Source of the DNA: an uncultured Elusimicrobium sp.
GTDB taxonomy: Bacteria > Elusimicrobiota > Elusimicrobia > Elusimicrobiales > Elusimicrobiaceae
Length of the DNA: 64,000 bases
Assembly (NCBI GenBank): GCA_947305555.1
Contig: CAMZDW010000004.1
Coordinates: forward strand, 1-64,000
Direction: 5' to 3'
Position numbers and translations under genes: made by a program. Every line of letters starts with the position of its first letter. Within the stretch, counting starts at the first letter, position 1. Under the pieces are notes generated by a model. The model worked only from the letters and a program-made list of their open reading frames with translations. It was not told where the DNA came from and searched no databases. Positions 19,077-62,205 of the stretch are shown here, in pieces.

Positions 19077-19106
19077 ATTATAGTAAATAGGGGGGAGGCG
19101 GAGCAA
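19077..19106 (-). promoter_or_regulatory. Promoter of gmk (leaderless arrangement)
   Basis: On the minus strand, TTGCTC (19101-19106), an 18-base spacer and a consensus TATAAT (19077-19082). Only 6 bases (AGCAAT) separate the -10 from the gmk ATG, so transcription should begin at or next to the A of the start codon. Confidence 0.7.
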
Positions 19107-24547: not shown

Positions 24548-24556
24548 AGTATAGCA
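24548..24556 (-). promoter_or_regulatory. Extended -10 promoter of hydE (leaderless arrangement)
   Basis: Minus strand reads TTTTTGC then TATACT, 7 bases, and the hydE ATG. The TGC before the hexamer makes an extended -10. No Shine-Dalgarno sequence fits between the -10 and the ATG. Confidence 0.6.
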
Positions 24557-24959: not shown

Positions 24960-24965
24960 TATAAT
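24960..24965 (+). promoter_or_regulatory. -10 element upstream of the secreted-peptide/protease unit
   Basis: TATAAT ending 8 bases before ATG 24974, with no Shine-Dalgarno between. It lies upstream of the duplicated block, so only the first protease copy has this promoter directly in front of it. Confidence 0.5.
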
Positions 24966-24973
24966 TGGATTAG

Positions 24974-25087
24974 ATGCATATACCTAACTTTATTTTTTTA
25001 ATTATTAGTTTGTTGATGTCTTTTTGCTTGAGCGGAAAAATCTTACACGCTCAAGAAGTTGCCATGCAGGAAAAACCTAAAAAATAA
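24974..25087 (+). CDS. Small secreted peptide, 37 residues, signal-peptide-like
   Basis: The frame reads MHIPNFIFLIISLLMSFCLS and continues to a signal-peptidase-like ILHA, then QEVAMQEKPKK. It therefore looks like a short exported peptide or a signal-peptide leader ORF. The last 23 codons lie inside the 356-bp block that is repeated before the second protease, where an in-frame ATG (26321) would give a 23-residue version (26321-26392). Translation is predicted to be leaderless. The function is unknown; translational coupling to the protease 36 bases downstream is possible. Confidence 0.4.
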   Translation: MHIPNFIFLIISLLMSFCLSGKILHAQEVAMQEKPKK

Positions 25088-25371
25088 CGTAGGAAGGTAA
25101 AAACTTAAATTGTGAGGAAAATCATGAAAACACAAACTCATTTAAACAGATGGTTCGGTGTGTTGGGGTGTTTGTTATTAGCCTCCGGGGTGTATGCTCA
25201 AGAAACTTCCTCTAAATTCTTACCGGTATATAATTCTTCTACCGGAAAGATAGAAGAAATTGAGATTAATGAAAACTTGACAGAAATTGCCGGCTTCGAA
25301 CCTCAATCTGAAACGGAAACCGTGATGGAAAAAGGGATTATAGGCCGGGAAGACTGGTATCAGGTCGATGG
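25016..25371 (+). repeat. Copy 1 of a 356-bp perfect direct repeat (leader plus protease N-terminus)
   Basis: Identical base for base to 26321-26676, offset 1305 bp. It covers the end of the small peptide ORF, the ribosome-binding site, and codons 1 to ~83 of the protease (signal peptide and propeptide). Identity breaks at 25372, and the proteins diverge strongly a few codons later, where the catalytic domain starts. Confidence 0.95.
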
Positions 25372-26317
25372 ACTGAAATATCCATATTCTGCTTCAGTTG
25401 CTCTGTTTTTTTCGGGGCAAATAAGGTGTTCTGCTGCTTTGATTGGTCCTTATACAATATTAACTAATGCACATTGTGTATATAAGGATCCTTCTCATAA
25501 TGACGGCACTTTACTTAATCCCAGTACAATTACAGCTTATGCTGGCGGAACAAGATATGGCGTAAAGGCCAAAGGAACTAGAATTTATGCTGCTTCAGGG
25601 ACAGAACGTATTCGCAATTTTAATGCTAGCACCGTAACAGCAGATTATGCCATTATTGTCTTAGACAAACCGTTAGGAAATAAGAATGGATACTTTGGAG
25701 TGAAATTAGGTCAGATTCACCGGAGAGATTCCATTTTTGTCTTAGGTTTTCCAGGAATAAAATCGCATGACCGTCCATGGTTGAGCCCAGGGGCGATCAC
25801 AGGTATCCATGCAGGATATTTTTGTCATAATGCAGATGAAGTATCAGGGAGTAGTGGTTCTCCGGTGTTTAAAAGCAATGATTTGAACAATATTGTGGGG
25901 ATTAACAGTTTTGACTCTGCTACATACCGTGGGTCCAGAAGGACATCTACTTGCAATGGCGCGATTACACATACACGGGACGCCTTAGTCAATTTTGTCA
26001 AACGATACAGGATGGAAAGACCTACCCAAGCAGAATCGCCAGATCCTCAACGGCAACGAGAGGAATTCTTTAATCGTTTGCAAAGTTGGATGGGCGGTCG
26101 TGGGCTGAGTCAGTTCCCGGATCAAACTCAAAGTCCCGAAACAGGTAATCCAAGTTCAAACGATTCTCGCCACAATGAGTTCATGCAAAATTTTCGACAA
26201 AATTTGCAGAACAGAGGGAGAACTTTTCAAAATGGTCAAAATCTCCCAGGAAAGATTCGAAGATTTATGCGCTTACCTCAAAAGACAAGAACTTCTACCG
26301 ATGCTGTTGCATTGTGA
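25124..26317 (+). CDS. Secreted trypsin-like (S1/V8-type) serine protease, copy 1
   Basis: 397 residues. Signal peptide ~1-25 (hydrophobic core then GVYA before QETSS), a propeptide to about residue 85, then a chymotrypsin-fold domain. The triad is H117 (LTNAHC), D174 (DYAIIVLD) and S244 (GSSGSPV). The motif pattern is closest to bacterial glutamyl-endopeptidase/V8-like enzymes. The last ~110 residues are Gln/Asn/Arg/Pro-rich and low in complexity. GTG 25112 is in frame, but AGGA sits between it and ATG 25124, so the ATG is preferred. The enzyme probably acts outside the inner membrane; its target is unknown. Confidence 0.88.
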   Translation: MKTQTHLNRWFGVLGCLLLASGVYAQETSSKFLPVYNSSTGKIEEIEINENLTEIAGFEPQSETETVMEKGIIGREDWYQVDGLKYPYSASVALFFSGQIRCSAALIGPYTILTNAHCVYKDPSHNDGTLLNPSTITAYAGGTRYGVKAKGTRIYAASGTERIRNFNASTVTADYAIIVLDKPLGNKNGYFGVKLGQIHRRDSIFVLGFPGIKSHDRPWLSPGAITGIHAGYFCHNADEVSGSSGSPVFKSNDLNNIVGINSFDSATYRGSRRTSTCNGAITHTRDALVNFVKRYRMERPTQAESPDPQRQREEFFNRLQSWMGGRGLSQFPDQTQSPETGNPSSNDSRHNEFMQNFRQNLQNRGRTFQNGQNLPGKIRRFMRLPQKTRTSTDAVAL

Positions 26318-26320
26318 TAA

Positions 26321-26676
26321 ATGTCTTTTTGCTTGAGCGGAAAAATCTTACACGCTCAAGAAGTTGCCATGCAGGAAAAACCTAAAAAATAACGTAGGAA
26401 GGTAAAAACTTAAATTGTGAGGAAAATCATGAAAACACAAACTCATTTAAACAGATGGTTCGGTGTGTTGGGGTGTTTGTTATTAGCCTCCGGGGTGTAT
26501 GCTCAAGAAACTTCCTCTAAATTCTTACCGGTATATAATTCTTCTACCGGAAAGATAGAAGAAATTGAGATTAATGAAAACTTGACAGAAATTGCCGGCT
26601 TCGAACCTCAATCTGAAACGGAAACCGTGATGGAAAAAGGGATTATAGGCCGGGAAGACTGGTATCAGGTCGATGG
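26321..26676 (+). repeat. Copy 2 of the 356-bp perfect direct repeat
   Basis: Begins at an ATG 4 bases after the end of the first protease gene (26317) and reproduces the leader, ribosome-binding site and first ~83 codons exactly. The absence of any mismatch, set against the strong divergence after 26676, points to recent duplication or gene conversion limited to the N-terminal cassette. Confidence 0.95.
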
Positions 26677-27679
26677 GTTGAAATATCCATATTCTGCCGT
26701 CGTATCCATTGTTCGCCCCGAATTTGTTGGCGGATACCCCGGATGTTCCGGTGCCTTGATTGGGCCTTACACTGTATTAACCAATGCACATTGTATGTAT
26801 GATAAAAAAGGAAAATTAGCCGATGCCTCGACGTTCAATATCAGAGCAGGTGGTGAATCTACAGGCCGCTGTGCAATCGGTACAAAAATGTATATGGCTC
26901 CCGGAAATCCTCAACAAATTAACTCCCGTTCTGGGCTAGAGCCCTCAAAAGAAAAAGATTATGCAATCATCGTTTTGGACCGTCCGCTCGGGCAAACCGC
27001 CGGTTATTTGAGCTTTAAATCTGTTCGAGTCAAAAAAAATGAACGTATTGCCGTGATGGGATTTCCAGGGGAAAAACCGCATGACCGCCCATGGTACAGC
27101 CCTGGTAAAATAACCGACGTTTTCCAAGGATACTTTCATATGGATGCTGATGCTATGCCGGGAAATAGCGGCTCTCCTGTTGTATATCAAAATGACTTAA
27201 AAACTATTATTGCATTGGAAACATTCGGTGAAGAAACCCCTAATCCGCGGTATAATGGGGCAATTATGTCTACAAATTCGGCACTGTTAAATTTTGTTAA
27301 TAAATACAAAAATGAACGTTCAACGGGAACGCCCGGCGAATGCTTTTCGTTGACAAACCTGCCGGAGCATTCCCAAGCGCAGCAAGAGCAAATGTCATCC
27401 ATTGTAACGGATATAACACAAGCCCTTACTAATCCGTCTGCTTCGGGAAGAATACAACCCGTCCCACCAGAAAATCCCGGGGCTGCTAACAGTTCTTCTG
27501 CTGGTAACATTGACCAATTGCGTCGTTATATGGGTCGATTAGGCAGACCGGGAAGATTTTCAACACCTCCAGGTTCTTCCAATTCTGGACGTATGCAAAC
27601 TCAGCCGTCGCAACCGTCTAACGGGGCGAGTGGTTTTATAAACAGATTACGCAATTTCAGAAATAGAAGCAGAAATTAG
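26429..27679 (+). CDS. Secreted trypsin-like (S1/V8-type) serine protease, copy 2
   Basis: 416 residues. Signal peptide and propeptide are identical to copy 1. The catalytic domain is only moderately similar: LTNAHC, KDYAIIVLD and MPGNSGSPV supply the triad, and GFPGEKPHDRPW parallels GFPGIKSHDRPW in copy 1. An extra cysteine pair (PGCSG, TNAHC) is visible near the histidine. The tail (~290-416) is Gln/Ser/Pro/Arg-rich. It is probably transcribed with copy 1, because the duplication does not include the upstream -10 element. A terminator follows. Confidence 0.88.
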   Translation: MKTQTHLNRWFGVLGCLLLASGVYAQETSSKFLPVYNSSTGKIEEIEINENLTEIAGFEPQSETETVMEKGIIGREDWYQVDGLKYPYSAVVSIVRPEFVGGYPGCSGALIGPYTVLTNAHCMYDKKGKLADASTFNIRAGGESTGRCAIGTKMYMAPGNPQQINSRSGLEPSKEKDYAIIVLDRPLGQTAGYLSFKSVRVKKNERIAVMGFPGEKPHDRPWYSPGKITDVFQGYFHMDADAMPGNSGSPVVYQNDLKTIIALETFGEETPNPRYNGAIMSTNSALLNFVNKYKNERSTGTPGECFSLTNLPEHSQAQQEQMSSIVTDITQALTNPSASGRIQPVPPENPGAANSSSAGNIDQLRRYMGRLGRPGRFSTPPGSSNSGRMQTQPSQPSNGASGFINRLRNFRNRSRN

Positions 27680-30342: not shown

Positions 30343-30348
30343 TATAAT
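30343..30348 (+). promoter_or_regulatory. -10 element of the 30355 lipoprotein gene (leaderless arrangement)
   Basis: Consensus TATAAT followed by AAACGT and the ATG, a 6-base gap, directly downstream of the pnp terminator. No Shine-Dalgarno sequence is possible between them. Confidence 0.65.
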
Positions 30349-32711: not shown

Positions 32712-32720
32712 ATTATAGCA
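32712..32720 (-). promoter_or_regulatory. Extended -10 promoter of the SIS gene (leaderless arrangement)
   Basis: Minus strand reads TTTTGC, TATAAT, CAAACT, ATG: an extended -10 with a 6-base gap to the start codon and no Shine-Dalgarno sequence. Confidence 0.65.
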
Positions 32721-32889
32721 AAAGCCAAGCCTTGTCCTCAGACCGGGGTGCTATTGGCCATACAGATGCTACAAAAAATTGTAAATCAGATAAGTGAACA
32801 AAAAAATCTATTTCTTGAAGAAAGAGCCCCCTTGCTGTCCGATTATGAAAAGCTATCTATCTTTTACGAAATAAAGTAAAATATTCTAT

Positions 32890-40950: not shown

Positions 40951-42294
40951 ATGTCCGACGAAAAACAATTCAGCCAAGCTGTTCAAACCAATCAAAATCC
41001 TACTGTTAATCAAGGAGTTACGGGGGCCACTTCGGCGGTAGATGTGCCGAAAGATGTAACGGCTTCGGTCAATGTGATGTCGAACCAAGTTCCGCCAAAT
41101 CCGTTTGTCGTTGATATTCCGCCCGTTCCTACGCAGGAAGGCCCTATGGGGATTCGCTATGATTTTAACGACGGGGCTCGTATCCTTTTGCCTAAAGGAA
41201 AATGGCATGTGCAAATTGAAGATGACGAAACCGATAACATTATTTTTGCCTGTGATGCCGATGAAGGATGGGTACTAAGCACAAAGAAATATTATATTCC
41301 GTTTCGCATTCGTGTTTGGGTACGGGGAGAACAAGAACCGGTGCTTAATCACACACTGGACCTCAAAGGAAAGGAAGTACAAATTAAATTCCCCGTTGGG
41401 ACAATAGGGGATACGGTAGGTTGGATGACGTATGCAAACCGTTTTCAACAAAAACATCAATGTGCGGCCGAAATAACCATGGCGAAGAATATGGCCGAAA
41501 TTTTTGCCGGTCAATATCCCAATTTATTTTTTACTGCTCTACCGGGAAAAGTACGTTTTGAAAAACCATATGCCAGTTATACGCTTGGCTTATTTTTTAG
41601 AGGAAATACGACGCACCAACCCATTGATTTTAGAAAAGTGGGTTTGCACCGTACGGCCGGGTTTATTTTGGGCGTAGATCCACGGGAAGAAGCCCCCAAA
41701 GTAAAACTGGGCAGCAAACGCAAGATCAAAGATCGTTATGTTTGTATTGCGACCAAGGCCAGCTCTCAAGCTAAGATGTGGAATAATGGTTACGGATGGG
41801 AACAAGTAGTGGCGTATTTGAAAGGGCTGGGCTACCGAGTATTTTGCATTGATAAAGAACCGGTTACCGGTTTTAAATATACATGGAACCGTATGCCGCA
41901 TGATGTAGAAGATTTTACAGGTAATAAATCCTTACAAGAGCGCATTGAACTATTGGAACACGCGGATTTTTTCATTGGGCTTGGTTCCGGGCTTTCGTGG
42001 TTAGCATGGTGTGCCAAAGTGCCGATCGTGCTCATTAGTGGTTTTTCGCTGCCGATGTGCGAATTCTACACGCCGTACCGCGTATTTAATTCTCACGGTT
42101 GTAATGGCTGTTGGGATGATGTTAACGTCAATTTTGATCATTACGATTATTTTTGGTGTCCTAAATTTAAGGATACCGACCGCCAATTCGAGTGCACCCG
42201 ATTGATTACGGGCAAGCAAGTTATTGGTCACATTAAACAGTTAATGAAAGACCATCATTTATCAGCGCCCAAACCCACCAAGGAGGATAAGTAA
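40951..42294 (+). CDS. Autotransporter strand-loop-strand O-heptosyltransferase (BAHT/TibC-like)
   Basis: 447 residues, cytoplasmic. The C-terminal half is a GT-B fold of the heptosyltransferase type (GLGSGLSWLAWCAKVPIVLI). A cysteine set in CNGCWDD, WCPK and QFEC matches the iron-binding site of TibC/Aah-type enzymes. These transfer heptose from ADP-heptose to serines of strand-loop-strand repeats in AIDA-type adhesins before export. The gene ends five bases before the giant autotransporter gene, whose passenger consists of such repeats, so enzyme and substrate are encoded together. The first ~65 residues are a Gln/Asn/Val-rich, probably disordered extension. Confidence 0.9.
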   Translation: MSDEKQFSQAVQTNQNPTVNQGVTGATSAVDVPKDVTASVNVMSNQVPPNPFVVDIPPVPTQEGPMGIRYDFNDGARILLPKGKWHVQIEDDETDNIIFACDADEGWVLSTKKYYIPFRIRVWVRGEQEPVLNHTLDLKGKEVQIKFPVGTIGDTVGWMTYANRFQQKHQCAAEITMAKNMAEIFAGQYPNLFFTALPGKVRFEKPYASYTLGLFFRGNTTHQPIDFRKVGLHRTAGFILGVDPREEAPKVKLGSKRKIKDRYVCIATKASSQAKMWNNGYGWEQVVAYLKGLGYRVFCIDKEPVTGFKYTWNRMPHDVEDFTGNKSLQERIELLEHADFFIGLGSGLSWLAWCAKVPIVLISGFSLPMCEFYTPYRVFNSHGCNGCWDDVNVNFDHYDYFWCPKFKDTDRQFECTRLITGKQVIGHIKQLMKDHHLSAPKPTKEDK

Positions 42295-42298
42295 CTTT

Positions 42299-45200
42299 AT
42301 GTCACACCACCGAAAAAAACCCGAAAATATTTATTCCAGTGCTTGTGTACAAGCCTTAGAGCAGGAATATTGTTCCAGCTGCAGTGCGGCTGTAGTGAGT
42401 TCTTGCTTTGTTTCCAGCCATGGTTTAGGGGCAAGGGTGGTGTCCCGCATTTACAACGGTGGCCGTCGTGCGGTGTACGTCGCTACGGTGGGAGCGATGC
42501 TTGTGCAAAATATGGTGCCGTATGCCTATGCGGATACAGATATTAGCTCAGGAACGTATACCTGGTTGGTAATAAGTGGGCAAACAGTTTCTGTCCACGC
42601 GAATGGAAGGACCTCGTACTCTATTGTTCAAGATGATGGCGTTGAGTTAATTTATGGTGGAGGGAAGGCTGGTGGAGGAACTGCTACATCTACCAGTGTA
42701 AACGATGGCGGACTTCAATGGGTTTCTTCCGGTGGAAAAGCTTTTTATACCGAAATCTTAACGGGAGGAATTCAGCAAGTAACTTCGAACGGAGTTGCTT
42801 CTAATACGCTCGTCGTGGCGGGAGGACAGCAGGAGGTATTTTCGGGCGGAGTTGCTTCTAATACGCACGTCGTGGCGGGAGGACGGCAGGAGGTATTTTC
42901 GGGCGGAGTAGCAAATAGTACAGTCCTTTCATCCGGGGGAGTTCTTTCGGTAGCATATGGAGGAAGAACTAGCAATGTTACTGTGTCGGGCGGCGGTATT
43001 CAGGTCGCAGTTTATAATAATGATAATAATACCTATATTTCCGGGAAATATGCATCCGGGACTGGGATGCTCCCATTCTCTTTAGGTGTCGGAAAAGCTA
43101 GTGGCTTTCATCTAGGCTCTGGTGGCGATTTGACAATTTATTCAGCAGCAAGTGCTACGTCTACAACAGTCCATAGTGGCGGAGTAGAAAATGTAAGAGG
43201 GGGATCCGCCAGGGACACCAGTGTTTTGAGTGGCGGTACTCAAAACGTGTATGATGGTGCAGTTGACGATGCAACTATTGATAAAGGCGGAATCCAACGA
43301 ATATCTGGAGGAACAGTCTCTAGCCCAATAGTAGGGGGAACCCAACAAGTTTTCGGAGGAACCGTGATCAACACGTACGTTTTAACTAGTGGCGTTCAAA
43401 ATATATCCAGTGGTACTGTAAATAGCACGTATGTTTACAGTGAGGGCGTTCAGGATGTAGCTGGGGGAGAGGTAAATGACACGTACGTTTTAACTAGTGG
43501 CGTTCAAAATGTATCCGGTGGTACGGTGAACCGTACAAATATTAAAAGTGGTGGAAAACAAACAATTTTTGGAGGGACTGTAAATAGCACGTATGTTTAC
43601 AGTGAGGGCGTTCAGGATGTAGCTGGGGGAGAGGTAAATGACACGTACGTTTTAACTAGTGGCGTTCAAAATGTATCCGGTGGTACGGTGAACCGTACAA
43701 ATATTAAAAGTGGTGGAAAACAAACAATTTTTGGAGGGACTGTAAATAGCACGTATGTTTACAGTGAGGGCGTTCAGGATGTAGCTGGGGGAGAGGTAAA
43801 TGACACGTACGTTTTAACTAGTGGCGTTCAAAATGTATCCGGTGGTACTGTAAATAGCGTGAATGTTTTCAGTGGGGGCGCTCAATCTGTGTTTGGAGGT
43901 ACCGTAGGCAACACTTCCCTTGAATTTGGTGCAACTCAAAAAGTGTTTAATGGTGAGGTAAACAGTACAATCCTTGCAAGTGGCGGCACGCAACATATCT
44001 CTGGAGGAACAGTCAATAACACTCAACTTACAGGAGCTCAATACATATCCGCAGGAAACGTAAATAGTACCATTATTTCATCAGGTGGCACGCAACATAT
44101 CTCTGGAGGAAATGCTAACCACACCTCGGTATATGGAGGAGGAACACAATATATTTCTTCAGGAGGGAGCGCTGTCAGCACAGTTTTGTTAGCTAATTCT
44201 AACGGTGGCGGTAGACAAAATGTCTATTCCGGTGGAAAAGCATATAATACGGTTATTAACAGCGGAACCAATCAAACAATTGGTAGCGGTGGTGCAGTTT
44301 ATTCCACTATCGTAAACCAAAGTGCCTACCAAATTGTAACAAATGGCGCTCTGGCCGTGAGTACAGATTTAGGGCCCAATGCATCTCAACATGTTAGATC
44401 AGGTGGAGTTGCTTCCGGTACGTTGGTAAATTCTTCGGGAGCTGTCCAAATTATCAGCTCGGGTGGGGTTGCTCAACAAGGGCAAATAGCCAATAGTGGA
44501 CAACAAAAAATATTAAGCGGAGCCGTCGCAAACAATGCTACTGTTAACAATGACGGGGTCCAGCATGTTTCTAACGGTGGAACGGCAAACTATACTTCTG
44601 TCAATTCCGGTGGAAAACAAATTGTTTCCAGCGGAGGTGTTGCAAGCGGTACACGCTTGATTTCCACCGGTTACCAAGAACTTAGGGCAGGCGCTTCCGG
44701 ATTTAATACTTCCTTGTATGCCGGCGGAAGTCAGCGCGTCAAGAAAGATGCTTTGGCTTCAGGGATTTATTTGTATACTGGCGGAGTTACGACCGTTGAA
44801 TCTGGAGCGACGGTACAAGATGTTTCCCTGTCTTCCGGCGGGGTTGTAGATTTATTATCAGGAGGCAATGCAAGTGGTGTTTCTGTTTACTCCGGTGCAG
44901 TATTAGACATAGGCAATGGCGCTACAGTCACTGATACCCATGTGAAATCAGGCGGACATCAGTGGGTATCTTCCGGAGGGGTTGCCTCTTCTACTCAAAT
45001 TGAAAATGGCGGTACTCAACAAATATTCTCCAGTGGGCTTGCGACCGATACCACAATTAGCAGTGCTGGTTATCAGGGCATTTTCTCGGGTGCATTGGCT
45101 TCTAACACGACTATTTTATCCAGCGGCGCACAGCGTATTTATGAAGGAGGGAGCGCGCTCTCTACCCATGTTTATGATCAGGCAGTCCAGCATATTTCCA

Positions 45201-48200
45201 GCGGTGGAACGGCCACCAGCACAACGGTTTTCGGCGGTGGTTTACAAACAGTATCTGCCGGGGGAACGGCCCGATTAGCCACTTTGACTTCCGGCGCCAG
45301 GCAGGAAATTTTATCCGGTGCAACTGCCAGTGGAACTATCGTTCAATCGGGAGCACAGCAAGTTGTTTCTGTCGGCGGTAGTGCGCTGAATATTACGCAA
45401 CAAAGCGGTGCTGCTGTTTACGCAAACGTGTACGGAGATGATACAGCTACTAAAATAACGGGTACCAATCAGAATGGAAGCAGTTTCTCTTTATCTTCCG
45501 GGAAGGCATCTAATTTTGTATTAAACAGCGGTGTGACGCAAATTGTTTCTAACGGCGGTGTGGCAAATGCTACGGAAATTCGTTCCGGTGCCAAACAAAC
45601 CTTAGCGGCCGGAAATGCAACTTCTGCGAATCAGACTGTTGTTTACGAAGGTGGCGTGCAAGCCATTGAAGAAAACGGGGTGGCTACAAGCACCAGCGTT
45701 TCCGGCGGATTGCAAACCGTTTCCAACGGAGGAACTGCCCAAAGTGCTACCTTATTTCAATCCGGCGTTCAAGAAATTCTTTCGGGCGGTCTTGCAAACA
45801 GAACGACTATTTCTGCCGGTGGTTCGCAATCTCTGGCTGGTGGGGCAATTGCGACGTCTGCCCAAATAACCTCTGGCGGAATACAAGAAGTCAAAGATGG
45901 CGGTCAAGCTTCTGCAACAACCGTTAGCGCCGGGGGAACTCAAATTGTTTCTTCCGGTGGAAGAGCCTATGGTGTAGTACAAAAAGAAAATGGAAATATA
46001 CAAGTAACGGTAGTCGCTAAAGAAGATACCGTTGTTTCCGGTACTAATGCAAAAGGGAAGGCTTTCTCTCTCTCCAATGGCGTAGCAGAGAATTTTATTG
46101 TCTATGCAGGTGGTAGCCAAGTAGTATTTTCAGGCGGGGTGGCAAACAATACGATTGTTTCTTCCGGCGGAACTCAAATTCTACTTTCCGGGACGAAAGG
46201 AGCTACCGCAAATAGTGCAATTATTGAAAATGGCGGTTTGCAAATTATCGAAGATAAAGGAATCGCTAACAATACGGTCATCAATGGTGGCGGTAGTCAG
46301 CATGTATTATCCGGTGGAACGGCAAATAGTACAACGATTAAATCGAACGGGGTACAGCAAGTTGAATCCGGCGGTATGGCTAATTCTACCGTGATTAGAG
46401 CCGGTGGTTCTCAAATAGTAGCTAATGGCGGTATTGTGGATGGAGCTACGGTATTTAATTCGGGCTCTCAGATCGTTTCTTCCGGCGGGATTTTAAGCAA
46501 TACAATGATTAATTCTGGTGGTTCCGTATTCGTGGAAGCCGGTGGAACGGCCCAGGATATTATTATTAATTCTGGGGGACTTGAAGCCATCACTTCCGAT
46601 GGTTTGGCACAACGGACTTCCATTTTGGCATCAGGTTCCCAAGTAATCTCTTCCGGTGGATTGGCGAGTGAAACTACCATTTCCTCTGGTACCCAGCAAA
46701 TTAAAAATGGCGGTGTAGCTGTTACTACACTCATGAGCCAAGGTGGAATTCAACGGGTGGAATCTGGTGGATTTGCCAGTGATACAACCGTGCTCGCCTC
46801 TGCATCCCAAACGATTTTAGCTAATGGGTCAGCTGCACAAACCACTCTTTCTGGAGGAAGCCAAATTGTAGAAGGTAACGTCGATGATACAACCATAGTA
46901 AACGGTGGAACCCAGCACGTACGAAATAGCGGAGTTGCTAGCAATACTAAGGTAGTGGAAGGCACCCAAGTTATTTCTACAGGGGGAGGCGCTGCCGATA
47001 CAACCGTATATGCCAAAGGTTCCCAAATAATTAGTACGGGAGGAGTTACCTTTAACACGGTGGTTTCCGGAGGAACTCAGAATGTTCAAGGAATTGCAGG
47101 GGTTACAACCATAGTTTCCGGCGGGACCCAAAATGTATCGCAAGGCGGAGTTTCTCAATCTCCTACAGTTTCGAAGGCTACTTTGAACGTATCGAGCGGG
47201 GGGCAAGTAACAGATGCAACTTTACATAATGCCACACTCAATCTTCAACAGGGCGGAACTGTGCGTGCTTTAAACGCGGTATTAGGGACTATCAACGTAA
47301 CCGGAAATGGTGTAATGAATAAGGATATTCAACTGACAAACACAACGGTCAATATGAAACATACCACCGGGGTTCATACGTTGAGAATAGAAAAGTTGAC
47401 TGCTCAAGATTCCATATTTAATATGAATGTGGATCTAAAGGCACAGACAGCAGATAAGCTGAATATTACCAGCTCGTATACGGGAAATGCCCAACTTAAG
47501 TTAACTAATATCGCCAATGAAGCAAAAGAAACGTCAGACGATGGAATTCAGCTCGTGGCGTTTGGAAGCAGTGCAAGCGTCAATGGGTCGTTTACACTTC
47601 CCGGTGGAAAATGGGATCAAGGTGGATATGTGTATCGCTTGGTACAAGGTACTGAGGAAGGGGAAGGACAGGATTACTACTTACGTAGCACACGTGAATT
47701 ATCAGACGTATTTAAAACAATCCTCAATGTGCCTGTGATGAATGTGATGATAGCTCAAACGGGAATGAATTCGCTCCAAAAACGTTTGGGGGATTTGCGT
47801 GCCATGGATAATCAAAATAAAAAGCAAGGTATCTGGGCACGGAGCTATTACAAGGACATGACAGTAAAAGATCTGGCTAAAACCGACTTGAATTTGTTCG
47901 GTGCTGAAGCCGGATATGACTGGCTGTTCAGAGCAGACGAGCCAACCAAATTATATGCAGGGGTTTTGGTGGGTTTCTTGAAAGCTACTTCTATCAAAAC
48001 GGAAAATAATCAAGGAATGTACGATAAAGGAGATGGTATCGCTCCAACCGTAGGTGTTTACGCTACATTGGATAATGAAGACGGTTGGTTTGTCGACTTG
48101 GCCGCACGTAATTTTTGGAGTAAATTGGATATGAAAAATTACGCCAGCGATGGAACGGAACTAGCTTATTCACCTAAACGAAATGTACTTGCCTTGAGTG

Positions 48201-49018
48201 TAGAAGGTGGAAAAAATTATATTCAGGAGCAAGCACGAAACCGTTTCGTGCGAATTGAGCCAAAAGCAGAACTTTCCTATATGAATGCTGCTTCGGCCAC
48301 AACGTCCGTTTCCAATGCGGGCAAGATTGATTACAGTGCCGCGAACTATCTCAACCTGAAGGGCGCTGTATTGCTTTCGTATAATACAATTCGTGACAAT
48401 GGGTTGTTGTTAGAACCGTTGTTGGAATTGTCGGTACGTTATGAATTCTTAGGGACCGACGAAGTTTCCTACGGCGGGGCCAATGCCAAGAGTAATTTGC
48501 GTGGCGCAACTGCTGAAATTGATGCTGGGCTAAATATGCAACTAACTAAAAACTTGTACTGGTACGCATTAGGAAGCTACGAAGCCAGTGAAAAAGTTAA
48601 AGGTTGGGGCGTCCAAGCCGGAATTCGTTACACATTTGGCAAAGAAAGAAAAGACACTTGGGAGTTGCAAGCAGAACGGAAGCAACAGGCCCAACAGAAG
48701 CAGGAACAAGAACGTGCGGAAATTATGAAAAAAGCGCTTCAAAAGCAAGCTGCCTTAGAAAGAGAACAAGCGGCAGCTTTGCAGAAAGAAAATGAAGAGC
48801 GCCAAGCTGCGGCTGCCAAGGCCGCACAAAAAGCCGCCGCACAAGAGAAGGCAACTGCTTCGCAAGAAAGTATTTCCAAGCCGGTGGTATCACAACAAAT
48901 TGCTCCCACAAATACAGCAAGCCTACCGGACCAATTGGAAGTCTATAAAAAGCCGACAAATAAAGACTATTCTTTTATGCAATCGATAGAAAAACGATGG
49001 ATAGAAGAACAGAAATAA
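42299..49018 (+). CDS. Giant AIDA-type autotransporter adhesin with post-barrel coiled-coil tail
   Basis: 2239 residues. Residues 1-78 form a long signal region: a Cys-containing n-region (C16, C25, C28, C36) and a hydrophobic core before VPYAYA. The passenger (~79-1780) is a stack of ~18-19-residue repeats with the pattern SGGxQxVxSGGxAxxT, the substrate type of BAHT enzymes, expected to form a beta-helix on the cell surface. The autotransporter barrel spans ~1840-2113 (GIWARSYYKD to GWGVQAGIRYTF). A further ~126 residues rich in Gln, Glu, Lys and Ala follow, which is unusual. AGGAGG precedes the start, and a terminator follows the stop. Confidence 0.93.
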   Translation: MSHHRKKPENIYSSACVQALEQEYCSSCSAAVVSSCFVSSHGLGARVVSRIYNGGRRAVYVATVGAMLVQNMVPYAYADTDISSGTYTWLVISGQTVSVHANGRTSYSIVQDDGVELIYGGGKAGGGTATSTSVNDGGLQWVSSGGKAFYTEILTGGIQQVTSNGVASNTLVVAGGQQEVFSGGVASNTHVVAGGRQEVFSGGVANSTVLSSGGVLSVAYGGRTSNVTVSGGGIQVAVYNNDNNTYISGKYASGTGMLPFSLGVGKASGFHLGSGGDLTIYSAASATSTTVHSGGVENVRGGSARDTSVLSGGTQNVYDGAVDDATIDKGGIQRISGGTVSSPIVGGTQQVFGGTVINTYVLTSGVQNISSGTVNSTYVYSEGVQDVAGGEVNDTYVLTSGVQNVSGGTVNRTNIKSGGKQTIFGGTVNSTYVYSEGVQDVAGGEVNDTYVLTSGVQNVSGGTVNRTNIKSGGKQTIFGGTVNSTYVYSEGVQDVAGGEVNDTYVLTSGVQNVSGGTVNSVNVFSGGAQSVFGGTVGNTSLEFGATQKVFNGEVNSTILASGGTQHISGGTVNNTQLTGAQYISAGNVNSTIISSGGTQHISGGNANHTSVYGGGTQYISSGGSAVSTVLLANSNGGGRQNVYSGGKAYNTVINSGTNQTIGSGGAVYSTIVNQSAYQIVTNGALAVSTDLGPNASQHVRSGGVASGTLVNSSGAVQIISSGGVAQQGQIANSGQQKILSGAVANNATVNNDGVQHVSNGGTANYTSVNSGGKQIVSSGGVASGTRLISTGYQELRAGASGFNTSLYAGGSQRVKKDALASGIYLYTGGVTTVESGATVQDVSLSSGGVVDLLSGGNASGVSVYSGAVLDIGNGATVTDTHVKSGGHQWVSSGGVASSTQIENGGTQQIFSSGLATDTTISSAGYQGIFSGALASNTTILSSGAQRIYEGGSALSTHVYDQAVQHISSGGTATSTTVFGGGLQTVSAGGTARLATLTSGARQEILSGATASGTIVQSGAQQVVSVGGSALNITQQSGAAVYANVYGDDTATKITGTNQNGSSFSLSSGKASNFVLNSGVTQIVSNGGVANATEIRSGAKQTLAAGNATSANQTVVYEGGVQAIEENGVATSTSVSGGLQTVSNGGTAQSATLFQSGVQEILSGGLANRTTISAGGSQSLAGGAIATSAQITSGGIQEVKDGGQASATTVSAGGTQIVSSGGRAYGVVQKENGNIQVTVVAKEDTVVSGTNAKGKAFSLSNGVAENFIVYAGGSQVVFSGGVANNTIVSSGGTQILLSGTKGATANSAIIENGGLQIIEDKGIANNTVINGGGSQHVLSGGTANSTTIKSNGVQQVESGGMANSTVIRAGGSQIVANGGIVDGATVFNSGSQIVSSGGILSNTMINSGGSVFVEAGGTAQDIIINSGGLEAITSDGLAQRTSILASGSQVISSGGLASETTISSGTQQIKNGGVAVTTLMSQGGIQRVESGGFASDTTVLASASQTILANGSAAQTTLSGGSQIVEGNVDDTTIVNGGTQHVRNSGVASNTKVVEGTQVISTGGGAADTTVYAKGSQIISTGGVTFNTVVSGGTQNVQGIAGVTTIVSGGTQNVSQGGVSQSPTVSKATLNVSSGGQVTDATLHNATLNLQQGGTVRALNAVLGTINVTGNGVMNKDIQLTNTTVNMKHTTGVHTLRIEKLTAQDSIFNMNVDLKAQTADKLNITSSYTGNAQLKLTNIANEAKETSDDGIQLVAFGSSASVNGSFTLPGGKWDQGGYVYRLVQGTEEGEGQDYYLRSTRELSDVFKTILNVPVMNVMIAQTGMNSLQKRLGDLRAMDNQNKKQGIWARSYYKDMTVKDLAKTDLNLFGAEAGYDWLFRADEPTKLYAGVLVGFLKATSIKTENNQGMYDKGDGIAPTVGVYATLDNEDGWFVDLAARNFWSKLDMKNYASDGTELAYSPKRNVLALSVEGGKNYIQEQARNRFVRIEPKAELSYMNAASATTSVSNAGKIDYSAANYLNLKGAVLLSYNTIRDNGLLLEPLLELSVRYEFLGTDEVSYGGANAKSNLRGATAEIDAGLNMQLTKNLYWYALGSYEASEKVKGWGVQAGIRYTFGKERKDTWELQAERKQQAQQKQEQERAEIMKKALQKQAALEREQAAALQKENEERQAAAAKAAQKAAAQEKATASQESISKPVVSQQIAPTNTASLPDQLEVYKKPTNKDYSFMQSIEKRWIEEQK
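42791..42904 (+). repeat. Two tandem 57-bp repeats in the passenger-coding region
   Basis: 42791-42847 and 42848-42904 differ at only two bases. Each encodes one 19-residue strand-loop-strand unit (GVASNTxVVAGGxQEVFSG). Confidence 0.9.
43424..43855 (+). repeat. Perfect 162-bp tandem repeat in the passenger-coding region
   Basis: Two complete identical copies (43424-43585, 43586-43747) and a third that runs identically for about two thirds of its length (43748-~43855). Each copy encodes 54 residues, three 18-residue units. Absence of mismatches implies recent slippage or unequal recombination, in frame because 162 is a multiple of three. Confidence 0.95.
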
Positions 49019-49024
49019 ATCTAA

Positions 49025-49051
49025 AATATCCCGTAAATTCTACGGGATATT
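49025..49051 (+). terminator. Rho-independent terminator after the autotransporter
   Basis: Perfect 11-bp stem AATATCCCGTA/TACGGGATATT with a 5-base loop and a following T-run. Confidence 0.9.
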
Positions 49052-49071
49052 TTTTGTTTTTAAGCTTATAA

Positions 49072-49100
49072 TTGACAAAGAAATAATTTATTAGTAAACT
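49072..49100 (+). promoter_or_regulatory. Near-consensus promoter of the MarR-led lipid cluster (leaderless)
   Basis: Perfect TTGACA (49072-49077), exactly 17 bases, TAAACT (49095-49100), then 6 bases and ATG 49107. This is the clearest leaderless arrangement in the window. The regulator's own binding site could overlap it; the AT-rich spacer AATAATTTATTAG is partly palindromic. Confidence 0.8.
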
Positions 49101-49106
49101 ATTTAT

Positions 49107-49595
49107 ATGAAAACTTTTAATTCTTCTTTAAGTCGTTATGGTATTGATCCGGCCAAGGGCCGCACCTATGAAAATATTACTTACGTGCTGGCCTTAATCT
49201 ACAACCTGTTGCAAGCAAAAATTGAAAACTATTTGGCCCCGTATGATTTATCGGCTGTACAATTAAACGTATTAATGCTAGCAGCCTATCAAAATGAGGG
49301 AAAAGGGCTTAACCAAGTAGAATTGTCTAAACGCTTGATTGCTTCTGCCAGCAATATTACAAAACTGGTAGAAAAGTCCGTGAAAACAGGGCTAATTTCC
49401 AGAAAAACAAACCCGAAAAATCGTCGTGAAAATATTATTTGTATTACTAAGAAAGGGCAAGCCCTTATTGATAAAGTATGGCCCGGGTATGACCGGCTGG
49501 TTGCCACACTGACCGAGAAAATTCCAGCTGCTCAACGTGGCCGCATAGAACCCATTTTAAATAACTGGTTACAAGTTTTACAAGAGGAGAAATAG
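49107..49595 (+). CDS. MarR-family transcriptional regulator
   Basis: 162 residues. The winged-helix core is ALIYNLLQAKIENYLAPYDL, then LNQVELSKRLIASASNITKL (recognition region) and the wing ISRKTNPKNRRENIICITKKG. MarR proteins are dimeric repressors that release DNA on binding small, often aromatic or lipid-like, ligands. It is the first gene of the cluster, with one base before the next gene, so autoregulation together with the whole cluster is likely (inference). Confidence 0.9.
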   Translation: MKTFNSSLSRYGIDPAKGRTYENITYVLALIYNLLQAKIENYLAPYDLSAVQLNVLMLAAYQNEGKGLNQVELSKRLIASASNITKLVEKSVKTGLISRKTNPKNRRENIICITKKGQALIDKVWPGYDRLVATLTEKIPAAQRGRIEPILNNWLQVLQEEK

Positions 49596-49596
49596 T

Positions 49597-52500
49597 ATGC
49601 TATCGTTATTCAAAACTTTCTTCAATCGTGCTTTTTTATCTTTATTTTGTACCCAATATTTAGGATCTTTTAATGATAATTTTTTCCGTACCGCGTTAGT
49701 TACCTTTATTACCTATAAGGTAACCACCCTGTCCCAGACGGAGAAATCGGTTATTGTGGCCCTGGCGTTATCCTGTTTTATGTTGCCGTTCTTTTTATTC
49801 TCGGCACTGGCCGGGGAGCTAGCTGATAAAGTACGTAAAGACCGCTTGATTCAGGCTACTAAAATACTAGAACTTGTTATTGTTATACTAGCCGGAATCG
49901 GTTTCTTAACTACGAATATCTATCTATTACTTTTCGTTCTCTTTTTGATGGGAACTCAATCTGCTTTTTTTGGTCCGGTCAAATACAGTATCTTACCTGA
50001 AATATTGCCTAAACAACAATTAATTGCCGGTAACGGTATTATTGAGGCGGGCACTTATGGTTCTATCCTGCAGGGAACTATCTTCGGTGGACTTCTCGTT
50101 ACAGTATCACACTTGAAAGTATGGAAATTTTCTTTTCCGGTCAATGAATTTTTCATACCGTGCATTATTTTGGGCATTGCTTTGTTGGGTCTACTGGCTA
50201 GTTTATTGATTCCACCCCAAAAACCTTCTAATCCGAGCTTGACGATAGATAAAAACTTCATTAGAAGTACATGGAAAAATATGTCATTCGCTAAGCAAAA
50301 CCATGATATTTTCCTGTGCATCTTGGGGATTTCTTGGTTTTGGATGTTAGGAACGGCGATGTTGGCCCAAATTCCATCTTTAGCTTCTACCGTACTAAAT
50401 GGTTCGCCAAGTTTGTTAACTTTCTTACTCACGTTATTTTCCTGCGGTATTGGATTAGGAGCCTTGCTCTGCCAATTTCTAGTAAGGGGGGAAATTACCA
50501 GCAAATATGTCCCGGTCAGTGCGTTAATTATGACGATATTCCTGGCTGATTTTGTTTGTGCTACTTCCGGATATATTCCTTCAATAAACCCTATAGATTG
50601 TCTCGACTTCTTAAGGACATTTGCCGGTAAACGCATTACTGTAGATTTGTTAGGATTTGCCGTGTGCGGTGGTTTATATATCGTACCGCTCAATGCTATG
50701 TTGCAATCGCTGGCCACGGATGAAGTTCGTTCTCGTGTAATAGCTACTAACAACATTATTAATTCCTTATTCATGGTATTGGGCAGTGGATTTTGTGGGT
50801 TGTTACTGGCTCTTAAGTTCACTATTCCCTTTATCTTTGGCGTAATTGCCTTTTTAAATGCACTGGCAGCCATTTACATTTGCGGTTTATTACCGCATCA
50901 TATTATCCGTATGATTTTAACACACGTGCTCAATATCATTTACGGAGTTAAGGTCAAAGGCATTGAACATTGGAAAAATCTAGAAGGAAATGCCGTCATT
51001 GTGGCGAATCACACTTCGTTTTTGGATGCTGTATTGTTGTGGGTATATTTGCCAGGCCGTTTATACTTTGCTATTGATACCTACGTCAGCCGTAAATGGT
51101 GGGTAAGGCCGTTTTTGCACCTGGTAAAATATTTCCCCATTGATCCTACTAATCCAATGGCTGTAAAGTCTATTATTGAGGAAGTAAAAAGCGGCAAACG
51201 GGTGGTTATTTTCCCCGAAGGTCGTATTACAATGACAGGGGGGTTGATGAAAATCTATCCCGGTCCTGCTATGATTGCGGACAAAAGTAATGCACAACTC
51301 TTGCCTGTTTATTTGGAAGGAAGCCAATATTCTTTATTTTCCAGGTTTGGTACTCAGTTAAAAACGCGTCCACAAAGCAAAATCACTATTACCGTGCAAG
51401 TGCCTCGGAAAATAGAGATAGATGAAACTATAAAAGGGAAGGAGCGCCGCTTGGCCGCTTCCCGGGCGTTGTATGACTTGATGGTAAATATGAAGTACGA
51501 TGCCGGGAATATCCAAGAGACATTATTTGATTCGCTCTTAGACGCAGTAGAACTGGTAGGCCGGAAGAAACGAATTATAGATGATGTAACCCGTAAATCC
51601 TTAACCTACGGACGATTTTTAATGGCCATATTTATCATAGGCAAACAAATCGCCAAACGTCAAAAACAAGGCGATTTTGTGGGGCTGCTTTTGCCTAATA
51701 TGACGGCTAGCGTGGTTACTTTTTTTGGAATGAGAGCATTTAATATTACGCCTTGCATGCTCAACTTTTCGACGGGGGTAAAAAACATGCTTGCTTGTTG
51801 TAAAGCCGCCAAAATTTCTACGGTATACACTTCCAAAGCCTTTTTGGAACAGGGCGGGCTTTTAGAAACGGCAGCCGCGCTAAAGCAGTCCGGCCTTAAT
51901 TTAGTATATTTGGAAGACCTAAAAGAGCAAATTACAACTTGGGATAAATTATTGGGCTGGACGGTTTCTCACTTTCCCCGTTGCTATTATAAACGGGTAC
52001 GTGGCAATGTATCGCCGAAAGATCCTGCTGTTATATTATTTACATCAGGCAGTGAAGGCACTCCTAAAGGAGTTGTGCTTAGTCACGAAAATATTCAGGC
52101 AAATCGTTTGCAACTACTCAGTGTATTGGATTTGGGCGTGAAAGATCGTATGTTTAATGCTATGCCGATTTTCCACTCTTTTGGATTAGTCGCCGGCACT
52201 TTACTACCGCTTTTATGTGGGGTACCGGTATTTTTCTATCCATCACCTCTTCATTACCGCATAGTTCCAGAATTGATTTATGATCGGAATGCTACCATTA
52301 TTTTTGGTACGGATACCTTCTTTAATGGGTATGCAAAAATGGCCCATCCGTATGATTTTTACTCTGTACGTTTAGCTGTGGTTGGAGCGGAAAAACTGAA
52401 AGAGGAAACCATTCGTAAATATTATGACCAATTTGGTCTGCGCATCATGGAAGGTTACGGAGCCACTGAAACTTCACCGGTGATGGCAGTAAATACCCCG

Positions 52501-53040
52501 ATGTATTTTAAACGGGGCAGCGTGGGACGTTTCTTACCGGGAATTGAATATCAATTGGAACCGATCCCCGGTGTGGAAGAAGGCGGGAAATTAATCGTCA
52601 AAGGGAACAATATTATGGCTGGCTACGTACGGGACACAAAACCCGGCGTGCTGGAGCCGCCACAAGACGGTTGGTATGATACGGGCGATATCGTACGGGT
52701 GGATGAAGACGGATTTGTGTTCATCTTAGGCCGTGCTAAACGTTTTGCCAAAATTGCCGGAGAAATGATTTCTTTAACGGCAGTGGAAACAGAAATTAAC
52801 GCCTTATGGCCCGGGAAAATGCATGCAGTAATAAATATACCGGATGAGAAGAAGGGCGAACAGTTGGTGCTGTTTACTACGGAACCGACCCTAGAACGTT
52901 CTGCTCTACTAGCGGCTTTTAAAGAAAAGGGATTAAGTGAACTGGCTGTGCCGAAAACCATTCGTGTGGTAGAAGAAATTCCACTGATGGGTACCGGCAA
53001 GGTAGATTATGTAAAACTGAAAGAAATGATGTTTGCATAA
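49597..53040 (+). CDS. Three-part lysophospholipid transporter/acyltransferase/acyl-ACP synthetase (LplT-Aas fusion)
   Basis: 1147 residues. Residues ~1-430 are an MFS transporter of the LplT type (FNDNFFRTALVTF). A PlsC acyltransferase follows (~440-640) with VANHTSFLD (HX4D) and FPEGRIT. The C-terminal AMP-forming acyl ligase (~660-1147) has LFTSGSEGTPKGVVLSHE, EGYGATETSP, YDTGDIV and the terminal GTGKVDYVKL lysine. In E. coli LplT and Aas are separate proteins that flip and re-acylate lysophospholipids; fusions occur in other bacteria. In this cluster it could instead supply or transfer acyl chains to the product. Confidence 0.9.
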   Translation: MLSLFKTFFNRAFLSLFCTQYLGSFNDNFFRTALVTFITYKVTTLSQTEKSVIVALALSCFMLPFFLFSALAGELADKVRKDRLIQATKILELVIVILAGIGFLTTNIYLLLFVLFLMGTQSAFFGPVKYSILPEILPKQQLIAGNGIIEAGTYGSILQGTIFGGLLVTVSHLKVWKFSFPVNEFFIPCIILGIALLGLLASLLIPPQKPSNPSLTIDKNFIRSTWKNMSFAKQNHDIFLCILGISWFWMLGTAMLAQIPSLASTVLNGSPSLLTFLLTLFSCGIGLGALLCQFLVRGEITSKYVPVSALIMTIFLADFVCATSGYIPSINPIDCLDFLRTFAGKRITVDLLGFAVCGGLYIVPLNAMLQSLATDEVRSRVIATNNIINSLFMVLGSGFCGLLLALKFTIPFIFGVIAFLNALAAIYICGLLPHHIIRMILTHVLNIIYGVKVKGIEHWKNLEGNAVIVANHTSFLDAVLLWVYLPGRLYFAIDTYVSRKWWVRPFLHLVKYFPIDPTNPMAVKSIIEEVKSGKRVVIFPEGRITMTGGLMKIYPGPAMIADKSNAQLLPVYLEGSQYSLFSRFGTQLKTRPQSKITITVQVPRKIEIDETIKGKERRLAASRALYDLMVNMKYDAGNIQETLFDSLLDAVELVGRKKRIIDDVTRKSLTYGRFLMAIFIIGKQIAKRQKQGDFVGLLLPNMTASVVTFFGMRAFNITPCMLNFSTGVKNMLACCKAAKISTVYTSKAFLEQGGLLETAAALKQSGLNLVYLEDLKEQITTWDKLLGWTVSHFPRCYYKRVRGNVSPKDPAVILFTSGSEGTPKGVVLSHENIQANRLQLLSVLDLGVKDRMFNAMPIFHSFGLVAGTLLPLLCGVPVFFYPSPLHYRIVPELIYDRNATIIFGTDTFFNGYAKMAHPYDFYSVRLAVVGAEKLKEETIRKYYDQFGLRIMEGYGATETSPVMAVNTPMYFKRGSVGRFLPGIEYQLEPIPGVEEGGKLIVKGNNIMAGYVRDTKPGVLEPPQDGWYDTGDIVRVDEDGFVFILGRAKRFAKIAGEMISLTAVETEINALWPGKMHAVINIPDEKKGEQLVLFTTEPTLERSALLAAFKEKGLSELAVPKTIRVVEEIPLMGTGKVDYVKLKEMMFA

Positions 53041-62199: not shown

Positions 62200-62205
62200 A
62201 TTATA
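62200..62205 (-). promoter_or_regulatory. -10 element of the YjdF-like gene (near-leaderless)
   Basis: TATAAT on the minus strand ending 9 bases before ATG 62190, with no Shine-Dalgarno. The message would have only a few bases before its start codon. Confidence 0.55.

What the first reader, a model, noticed from the sequence alone, without database searches (positions are those of the whole stretch)
49072..49109. Several genes have -10 hexamers 6-9 nt before the ATG: predicted leaderless mRNAs
Seen: no Shine-Dalgarno and a -10 close to the ATG at gmk (TATAAT, 6 nt), 19937 (TATAAT, 6), hydE (TATACT, 7), 24974 (TATAAT, 8), 30355 (TATAAT, 6), SIS 32705 (TATAAT, 6), ftsK (TAAAAT, 7), MarR 49107 (TTGACA, 17 nt, TAAACT, 6) and 62190 (TATAAT, 9). 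Operon-internal genes instead carry AGGAG. Known: bacterial transcription usually starts ~6-8 nt after the -10. Inference: first genes of transcripts are often leaderless in this lineage, as in Actinobacteria and Deinococcus, whereas downstream genes use Shine-Dalgarno sites.
Basis: partly seen in the sequence, partly recalled or inferred. Interest (0 to 1): 0.68.

Follow-up and report, generated by a model that had tools for sequence, protein, structure and literature searches.

The report
Leaderless mRNAs in class Elusimicrobia
In this gut bacterium of the class Elusimicrobia, many genes at the front of a transcript have their promoter -10 box exactly 6-7 bases before the ATG, so their mRNAs should begin at the start codon with no ribosome-binding leader; the signature runs through the class but is missing from the rest of its phylum.

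Summary
The window is an Elusimicrobiaceae MAG. All nine sites exist as described. In 464 kb of its genome, a consensus -10 lies 6-7 nt before the ATG in 35 of 216 candidate first genes but in 1 of 191 operon-internal genes (Fisher p=1.4e-9). The peak at d=6 is sharp: 23 against 2.9 expected. A mixture model puts about a third of divergent first genes, 17% of other genes with an upstream gap >25 nt and ~1% of internal genes in this class. Most other genes carry AGGAG; relatives' 16S tail is intact.

Orthologs support it. The ftsK -10-to-ATG arrangement persists across ~40 species. The MarR gene at 49107 keeps TTGACA-17-TAAACT-6-ATG in 18 orthologs forming one clade, while SD-led relatives keep the same promoter and carry AAGGAG where the others have ATG(G/A)AA: an in-place switch of initiation mode.

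Across 341 Elusimicrobiota genomes, TATAAT at d=6 exceeds other distances 1.7-4.5-fold in every family group of the window's class (235 genomes), and not at all outside it (106 genomes).

Transcript ends were not mapped. The mechanism is known (Actinobacteria, Deinococcus-Thermus); I found no report of it for this lineage in the held library.

The parts
49027..49055 (+). intrinsic-terminator-like hairpin (TATCCCGTA-AATTC-TACGGGATA-TTTTTT) ending the upstream autotransporter transcript, so MarR starts a new transcript
   Evidence: read directly
49072..49077 (+). -35 TTGACA of the MarR promoter
   Evidence: conserved in orthologs
49095..49100 (+). -10 TAAACT of the MarR promoter, 17 nt after the -35 and 6 nt before the ATG
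49079..49106 (+). imperfect palindrome overlapping spacer, -10 and discriminator; proposed MarR self-operator
   Evidence: 20/24 self-complementary in the window copy, 24/28 in three orthologs; operator role is inference
49107..49595 (+). MarR-family regulator, predicted leaderless (mRNA +1 = A of ATG)
   Evidence: PF01047; promoter anatomy; 18 orthologs with the same register
49597..53040 (+). operon partner with SD GAGGAG: MFS + acyltransferase + acyl-AMP ligase fusion
19077..19082 (-). -10 TATAAT, 6 nt before ATG of gmk (19070)
   Evidence: guanylate kinase PF00625
19944..19949 (-). -10 TATAAT, 6 nt before ATG of gene 19937, following a terminator-like hairpin
24548..24553 (-). -10 TATACT, 7 nt before ATG of a radical-SAM (HydE/BioB-like) gene
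24960..24965 (+). TATAAT 8 nt before ATG 24974, which opens only a 37-codon signal-peptide-like ORF; doubtful as a gene
30343..30348 (+). -10 TATAAT, 6 nt before ATG 30355, right after a terminator-like hairpin behind pnp
   Evidence: kept in many orthologs
32712..32717 (-). extended -10 (TGC TATAAT), 6 nt before ATG of the SIS-domain gene
   Evidence: 5 of 5 usable orthologs, all d=6
32877..32882 (+). -10 TAAAAT, 7 nt before ATG of ftsK
   Evidence: 36 of 39 orthologs by the automatic test, d=6-9; the other 3 fail only by start-site choice
62200..62205 (-). -10 TATAAT, 9 nt before ATG of DUF2238 membrane protein (62190); a 2-3 nt leader is possible

Best explanation
In the class Elusimicrobia a housekeeping-type sigma promoter is placed so that its -10 hexamer ends 6-7 nt before the ATG of many transcript-first genes. 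RNA polymerase normally starts about 7 nt after the -10, so the first nucleotide of the mRNA is the A of the start codon, or within a couple of bases of it, and the message has no leader and no Shine-Dalgarno site. Such 5'-terminal AUGs are presumably read by 70S or fMet-tRNA-preloaded ribosomes, while downstream genes, and most first genes, use ordinary AGGAG sites with the intact anti-SD. At 49107 the promoter and a palindromic operator run straight into the ATG, so a MarR repressor probably controls its own leaderless operon. Shown: motif, spacing, restriction to first genes, conservation, class limits. Inferred: transcript ends, ribosome pathway, autorepression.
For: Sharp d=6-7 peak in first genes only (35/216 vs 1/191). 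15 of 16 ATGs at d=6 after TATAAT begin an ORF of 80+ codons. Extended -10 TG in 15 of 40 such promoters against 1.25 at control offsets, a promoter feature with no role in ribosome binding. ATG in all 40 hits. ftsK -10 and spacing kept in 36/39 orthologs against a 2.6% sliding null, with no SD in any. MarR -35/-10/ATG register kept in 18 orthologs with in-frame stops just upstream, so no earlier start exists. Same peak in a 69% GC relative of another family of the class (15 vs 1.36 expected, p=2e-11) and a 64% GC one of the same order. Class-wide excess in 235 genomes, ratio 1.7-4.5 over off-peak distances.
Against: No transcript 5' end was measured. The -35 signal is weak in most of these promoters (9 of 40 with at least 4/6 matches, null 5.8). 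Gene starts came from a home-made caller. When the mixture model was refitted freely on shuffled DNA its first component absorbed noise (0.7 of divergent genes), so only the fixed-parameter shuffles (0.06) are a usable null. The -1 pyrimidine preference is not distinctive here because other starts also have T at -1.
Confidence: 0.88

Rival explanations
1. The hexamers are AT-rich coincidence: intergenic DNA is AT-rich, so TATAAT-like words often fall near an ATG.
For: Upstream regions of first genes are AT-rich and a background of about 3 consensus hits per distance exists in first genes.
Against: Fixed-distance peak 23 vs 2.93, P about 1e-13; composition-matched hexamers TAATAT and TTAATA show no peak; a 69% GC relative shows the same peak; AT-rich genomes outside the class show none.
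Confidence: 0.02
2. The true start codons lie downstream, and the ATG next to the -10 is spurious, so the mRNAs have ordinary leaders.
For: Start calls were automatic; some genes have several candidate ATGs (ftsK in L047, L054 and L074).
Against: ftsK orthologs keep a conserved N-terminus (M-x-x-Y-Y-Y or close) directly after that ATG; MarR orthologs have no nearby alternative ATG, except L112, which has a second ATG four codons in; the peak sits on the most upstream ATG of long ORFs.
Confidence: 0.04
3. The AT-rich hexamer is a translation element (S1-type or non-SD ribosome site), and transcription starts further upstream.
For: A short S1-like protein (about 400 aa) is present; Nakagawa 2017 (PMC5397173) notes that S1 sites and Pribnow boxes are hard to tell apart from base bias alone.
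Against: Word-specific TATAAT at a fixed spacing, with an extended -10 TG in front of it; absent from internal genes, which an S1 site should serve equally; at MarR a TTGACA sits exactly 17 nt upstream and is co-conserved; genes 49107, 19937 and 30355 directly follow terminator-like hairpins.
Confidence: 0.05
4. At 49107 the conserved block is only a MarR operator and says nothing about the start of the message.
For: The block is an imperfect palindrome (24/28) with paired changes on both arms in L121.
Against: TTGACA lies outside the palindrome and is also conserved; SD-led orthologs keep the block but place the ATG 18-20 nt after the -10, so the operator does not force the ATG position, yet 18 of 18 in the other clade keep it at 6 nt. 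It explains one locus, not the genome-wide peak.
Confidence: 0.05

Closest known systems
Leaderless genes with an adjacent -10 motif in Deinococcus-Thermus (PMC12340547; de Groot et al. 2014 as cited there)
   Same: TANNNT about 6-7 bp upstream of the ORF, RBS motif in other genes, promoter function shown there by reporters
   Different: There ~30% of all ORFs and TACACT as the commonest form; here about 13% of sampled genes by my estimate, TATAAT with extended TG, and a gut lineage of another phylum
TA-signal leaderless genes of Actinobacteria (Zheng et al. 2011, PMC3160421; mycobacteria, PMC3898074 and PMC4633059)
   Same: -10-like signal at a fixed distance from the TIS; first genes leaderless, operon-distal genes SD-led
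   Different: Elusimicrobia are not named in that paper's main text; 20 genomes are pooled there as 'Other Bacteria'. Here the signal is absent from sister classes of the same phylum
GeneMarkS-2 class of bacterial genomes with leaderless transcription (as described in PMC9581028)
   Same: mixture of SD-led and leaderless starts within one genome; 21.6% of bacterial species predicted so
   Different: that program was not run here, and whether any Elusimicrobia genome was placed in this class could not be looked up

Membership tests
Bacterial leaderless transcription | -10 hexamer at a fixed 6-7 nt from the start codon, above chance | tested here: met
   23 vs 2.93 at d=6, 12 at d=7; 46 genome-wide vs 13 per off-peak distance
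Bacterial leaderless transcription | restricted to first genes of transcripts | tested here: met
   35/216 vs 1/191, p=1.4e-9; operons inferred from strand and gap only
Bacterial leaderless transcription | no Shine-Dalgarno in these genes, SD elsewhere with intact anti-SD | tested here: met
   0 of 39 ftsK orthologs have an SD core; SD core in 60% of internal genes; CCTCCTT 16S tail found in 10 of 31 genomes searched including the same genus, not recovered in this incomplete MAG
Bacterial leaderless transcription | start codon AUG (or GUG) | tested here: met
   40 of 40 ATG; but the caller prefers ATG, so this test is soft
Bacterial leaderless transcription | mapped mRNA 5' end at the start codon | not testable with these tools
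   no RNA data for this lineage found or held
Housekeeping sigma promoter (extended -10 type) | TGn directly upstream of TATAAT | tested here: met
   15 of 40 vs 1.25 expected
Housekeeping sigma promoter | TTGACA -35 at 16-18 nt | tested here: inconclusive
   clear and conserved at MarR; 9 vs 5.8 expected across 40 promoters
MarR self-regulated operon | dyad operator over its own promoter | tested here: inconclusive
   24/28 palindrome in orthologs, repeat finder reports none in the window copy at its settings; binding not testable

The most novel reading that the evidence does not exclude
Leaderless initiation is a class-level trait that differs within one phylum (present across Elusimicrobia, no signal in the other classes), and genes can switch mode in place: at the MarR promoter an unchanged TSS region carries either a 12-14 nt leader that opens with AAGGAG or, in the same columns, ATG(G/A)AA, so an SD at the 5' end can become a 5'-terminal start codon with very few base changes.
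Probability: 0.55. Interest if true: 0.62.

Novelty: new member of a known kind. Interest (0 to 1): 0.52.

Why it matters
It adds a lineage to the short list of bacteria that appear to rely on leaderless messages, with a clean contrast inside one phylum, so gain or loss of the trait can be studied against close relatives that lack it. It also means that gene finders tuned to SD sites may misplace starts in these MAGs. The MarR series gives a concrete, testable route between SD-led and leaderless initiation at a fixed promoter.

Tried and rejected
Reversed-pattern control: used first and suggested a 1.6-fold excess in family f21 outside the class; replaced by off-peak distances of the same word, which removed that excess. 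Free refit of the mixture model on shuffled DNA: uninformative, it absorbed noise. Preference for a pyrimidine at -1 as a sign of the TSS: not distinctive. ftsK leaderless state traced beyond the family: in the order-level relatives looked at, ftsK does not show it, two f15 genomes do (TATAAT, d=8), so the history of that gene is unclear. Missing translation factors as a cause: IF3 and an S1-like protein are both present, so no simple loss explains the trait. A file of the whole genome was not available, so a 464-kb sample of stretches was used.

Full report
What the window is. Orthologs of the window's FtsK come from Elusimicrobiaceae MAGs of rumen and other animal guts, so the window is from the phylum Elusimicrobiota, class Elusimicrobia (for the taxonomy). 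The assembly has 1.36 Mb in 60 contigs and is about 80% complete.

The observation. At 49107 the sequence reads TTGACA, 17 nt, TAAACT, 6 nt, ATG. It follows a perfect 9-bp hairpin with a T run (49027-49055), so the MarR gene begins a new transcript. Genes 19937 and 30355 also follow terminator-like hairpins. The one weak site is 24974, whose ORF is 37 codons.

Is it more than chance? I took 464 kb of the genome (twenty 20-kb stretches plus the window), called genes with a codon-based script and fixed starts without using any upstream signal. Among 216 genes with a divergent neighbour or an upstream gap over 25 nt, a -10 with at least 5 of 6 consensus bases lies at d=6 in 23 and at d=7 in 12; off-peak distances average 2.93 (P about 1e-13 for d=6). 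Among 191 operon-internal genes the count at d=6-7 is 1 (Fisher p=1.4e-9). Hexamers of the same composition show no peak. Of ATGs lying 6 nt after TATAAT anywhere in the sample, 15 of 16 are the first ATG of an ORF of at least 80 codons. Whole genome: 46 TATAATN6ATG, against 8 reversed and 13 per distance over d=10-16.

How many genes. A mixture model gave 40% leaderless, 46% SD for divergent first genes; 18% and 67% for same-strand genes with a gap over 25 nt; 1% and 73% for internal genes. With the same parameters on shuffled upstream DNA the leaderless share was 6%, 1% and 1%. So about a third of divergent first genes and about 13% of all sampled genes fit. Refitting the model freely on shuffled DNA is not a usable control, because the component then fits noise. 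SD sites remain the most frequent class even among first genes.

Promoter type. Fifteen of the 40 promoters have the extended -10 TG (1.25 expected); -35 matches are barely above chance (9 vs 5.8). MarR, with a full -35, is the exception.

Conservation. For ftsK, 36 of 39 orthologs (63-88% protein identity) have the -10 at d=6-9 of the conserved start, none has an SD core, and the same test slid upstream succeeds in 2.6% of positions; the three failures come from the choice between two neighbouring ATGs. All five usable SIS orthologs have TGC/TGG-TATAAT at d=6. Orthologs of 30355, at only 25-50% protein identity, still mostly carry TATAAT-like boxes a few nt before the ATG (read by eye, not scored).

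The MarR locus. In 18 orthologs the block from TTGACA to the ATG is nearly invariant and the DNA upstream of it is not. These 18 form one clade (98/96 support). Five SD-led orthologs (L118, L120, L121, L122, L123) lie outside it. Four of them keep the same promoter block, but 6 nt after the -10 they carry (C/A)AAGGAG or a similar SD and the ATG comes 12-14 nt later; in L121 the columns line up without gaps (AAGGAGATTATTATG against ATGGAAACTAATAAA, both read directly after TAAACT plus 6 nt; the automatic alignment shifts this stretch by one column). The simplest reading is a change of initiation mode at a fixed transcription start, from SD-led to leaderless at the base of the 18-member clade. 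Distant paralogs (L125-L129) are leaderless too, so the deeper direction is open. The block is an imperfect palindrome (24/28 in three orthologs, 20/24 in the window copy), which suggests an autorepressor operator reaching the ATG; this is inference. The next gene, with its own GAGGAG, is an MFS/acyltransferase/acyl-ligase fusion.

Phylum survey. TATAATN6ATG was counted in 341 Elusimicrobiota genomes, and the same word at d=10-16 served as control. Ratio of d=6 to the mean off-peak distance: own genus 3.4, other genera of the family 2.0, rest of the order 2.1, other families of the class 1.7, 4.2 and 4.5 (235 genomes in all); outside the class 0.82, 1.00 and 0.87 (106 genomes). For the largest outside family (77 genomes) even d=5-9 pooled gives 0.98. 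Gene-based histograms agree: a 69% GC genome of another family has 15 TANNNT at d=6 against 1.36 expected, a 64% GC genome of the same order 9 against 2.1, and a genome outside the class 5 against 3.7 (p=0.3, small sample). A shift to a non-TATAAT -10 outside the class would be missed by the whole-genome counts.

Translation machinery. The anti-SD tail is intact where a 16S end could be read; infC is present; an S1-like protein of about 400 aa that matches only the first two thirds of the model is present. So this is not a genome that has lost SD initiation.

Literature. Leaderless genes recognised by a -10 at fixed distance are known in Actinobacteria, Deinococcus-Thermus and others (PMC3160421; PMC12340547; PMC9581028). 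Only two held papers contain both 'leaderless' and 'Elusimicrobi', neither on this point as far as I read, and none of four reports transcription start mapping for the group judging from titles and abstracts. Papers outside the library may exist. I therefore file it as a new member of a known kind.

Noticed in passing
window 25112-27679: Two neighbouring trypsin-like protease genes (real starts probably ATG 25124 and 26429) with identical 60-nt upstream sequences: a tandem duplication.
   Followed up: partly
window 24974-25087: A 37-codon signal-peptide-like ORF behind TATAAT (d=8), just upstream of the duplicated proteases; possibly a small leaderless peptide or a decayed gene start.
   Followed up: no
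window 40951-49018: TibC-like glycosyltransferase followed by a 2239-aa AIDA/pertactin-type autotransporter: looks like a glycosylated surface adhesin pair.
   Followed up: no
window 49597-53040: MFS transporter, PlsC-type acyltransferase and AMP-binding ligase fused in one 1147-aa protein (LplT-Aas-like), under the MarR gene.
   Followed up: no
window 32866-32882 and ftsK orthologs L031-L078: An A-rich run is conserved just before the ftsK -10 (AAA at -8 to -6 relative to it in all 36, often GG directly before TAAAAT), with the DNA further upstream much less conserved.
   Followed up: partly
G000:C18:14180-15196 and relatives: The S1-like ribosomal protein is about 400 aa and matches only positions 4-347 of the 516-position rpsA model throughout the relatives searched.
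   Followed up: no
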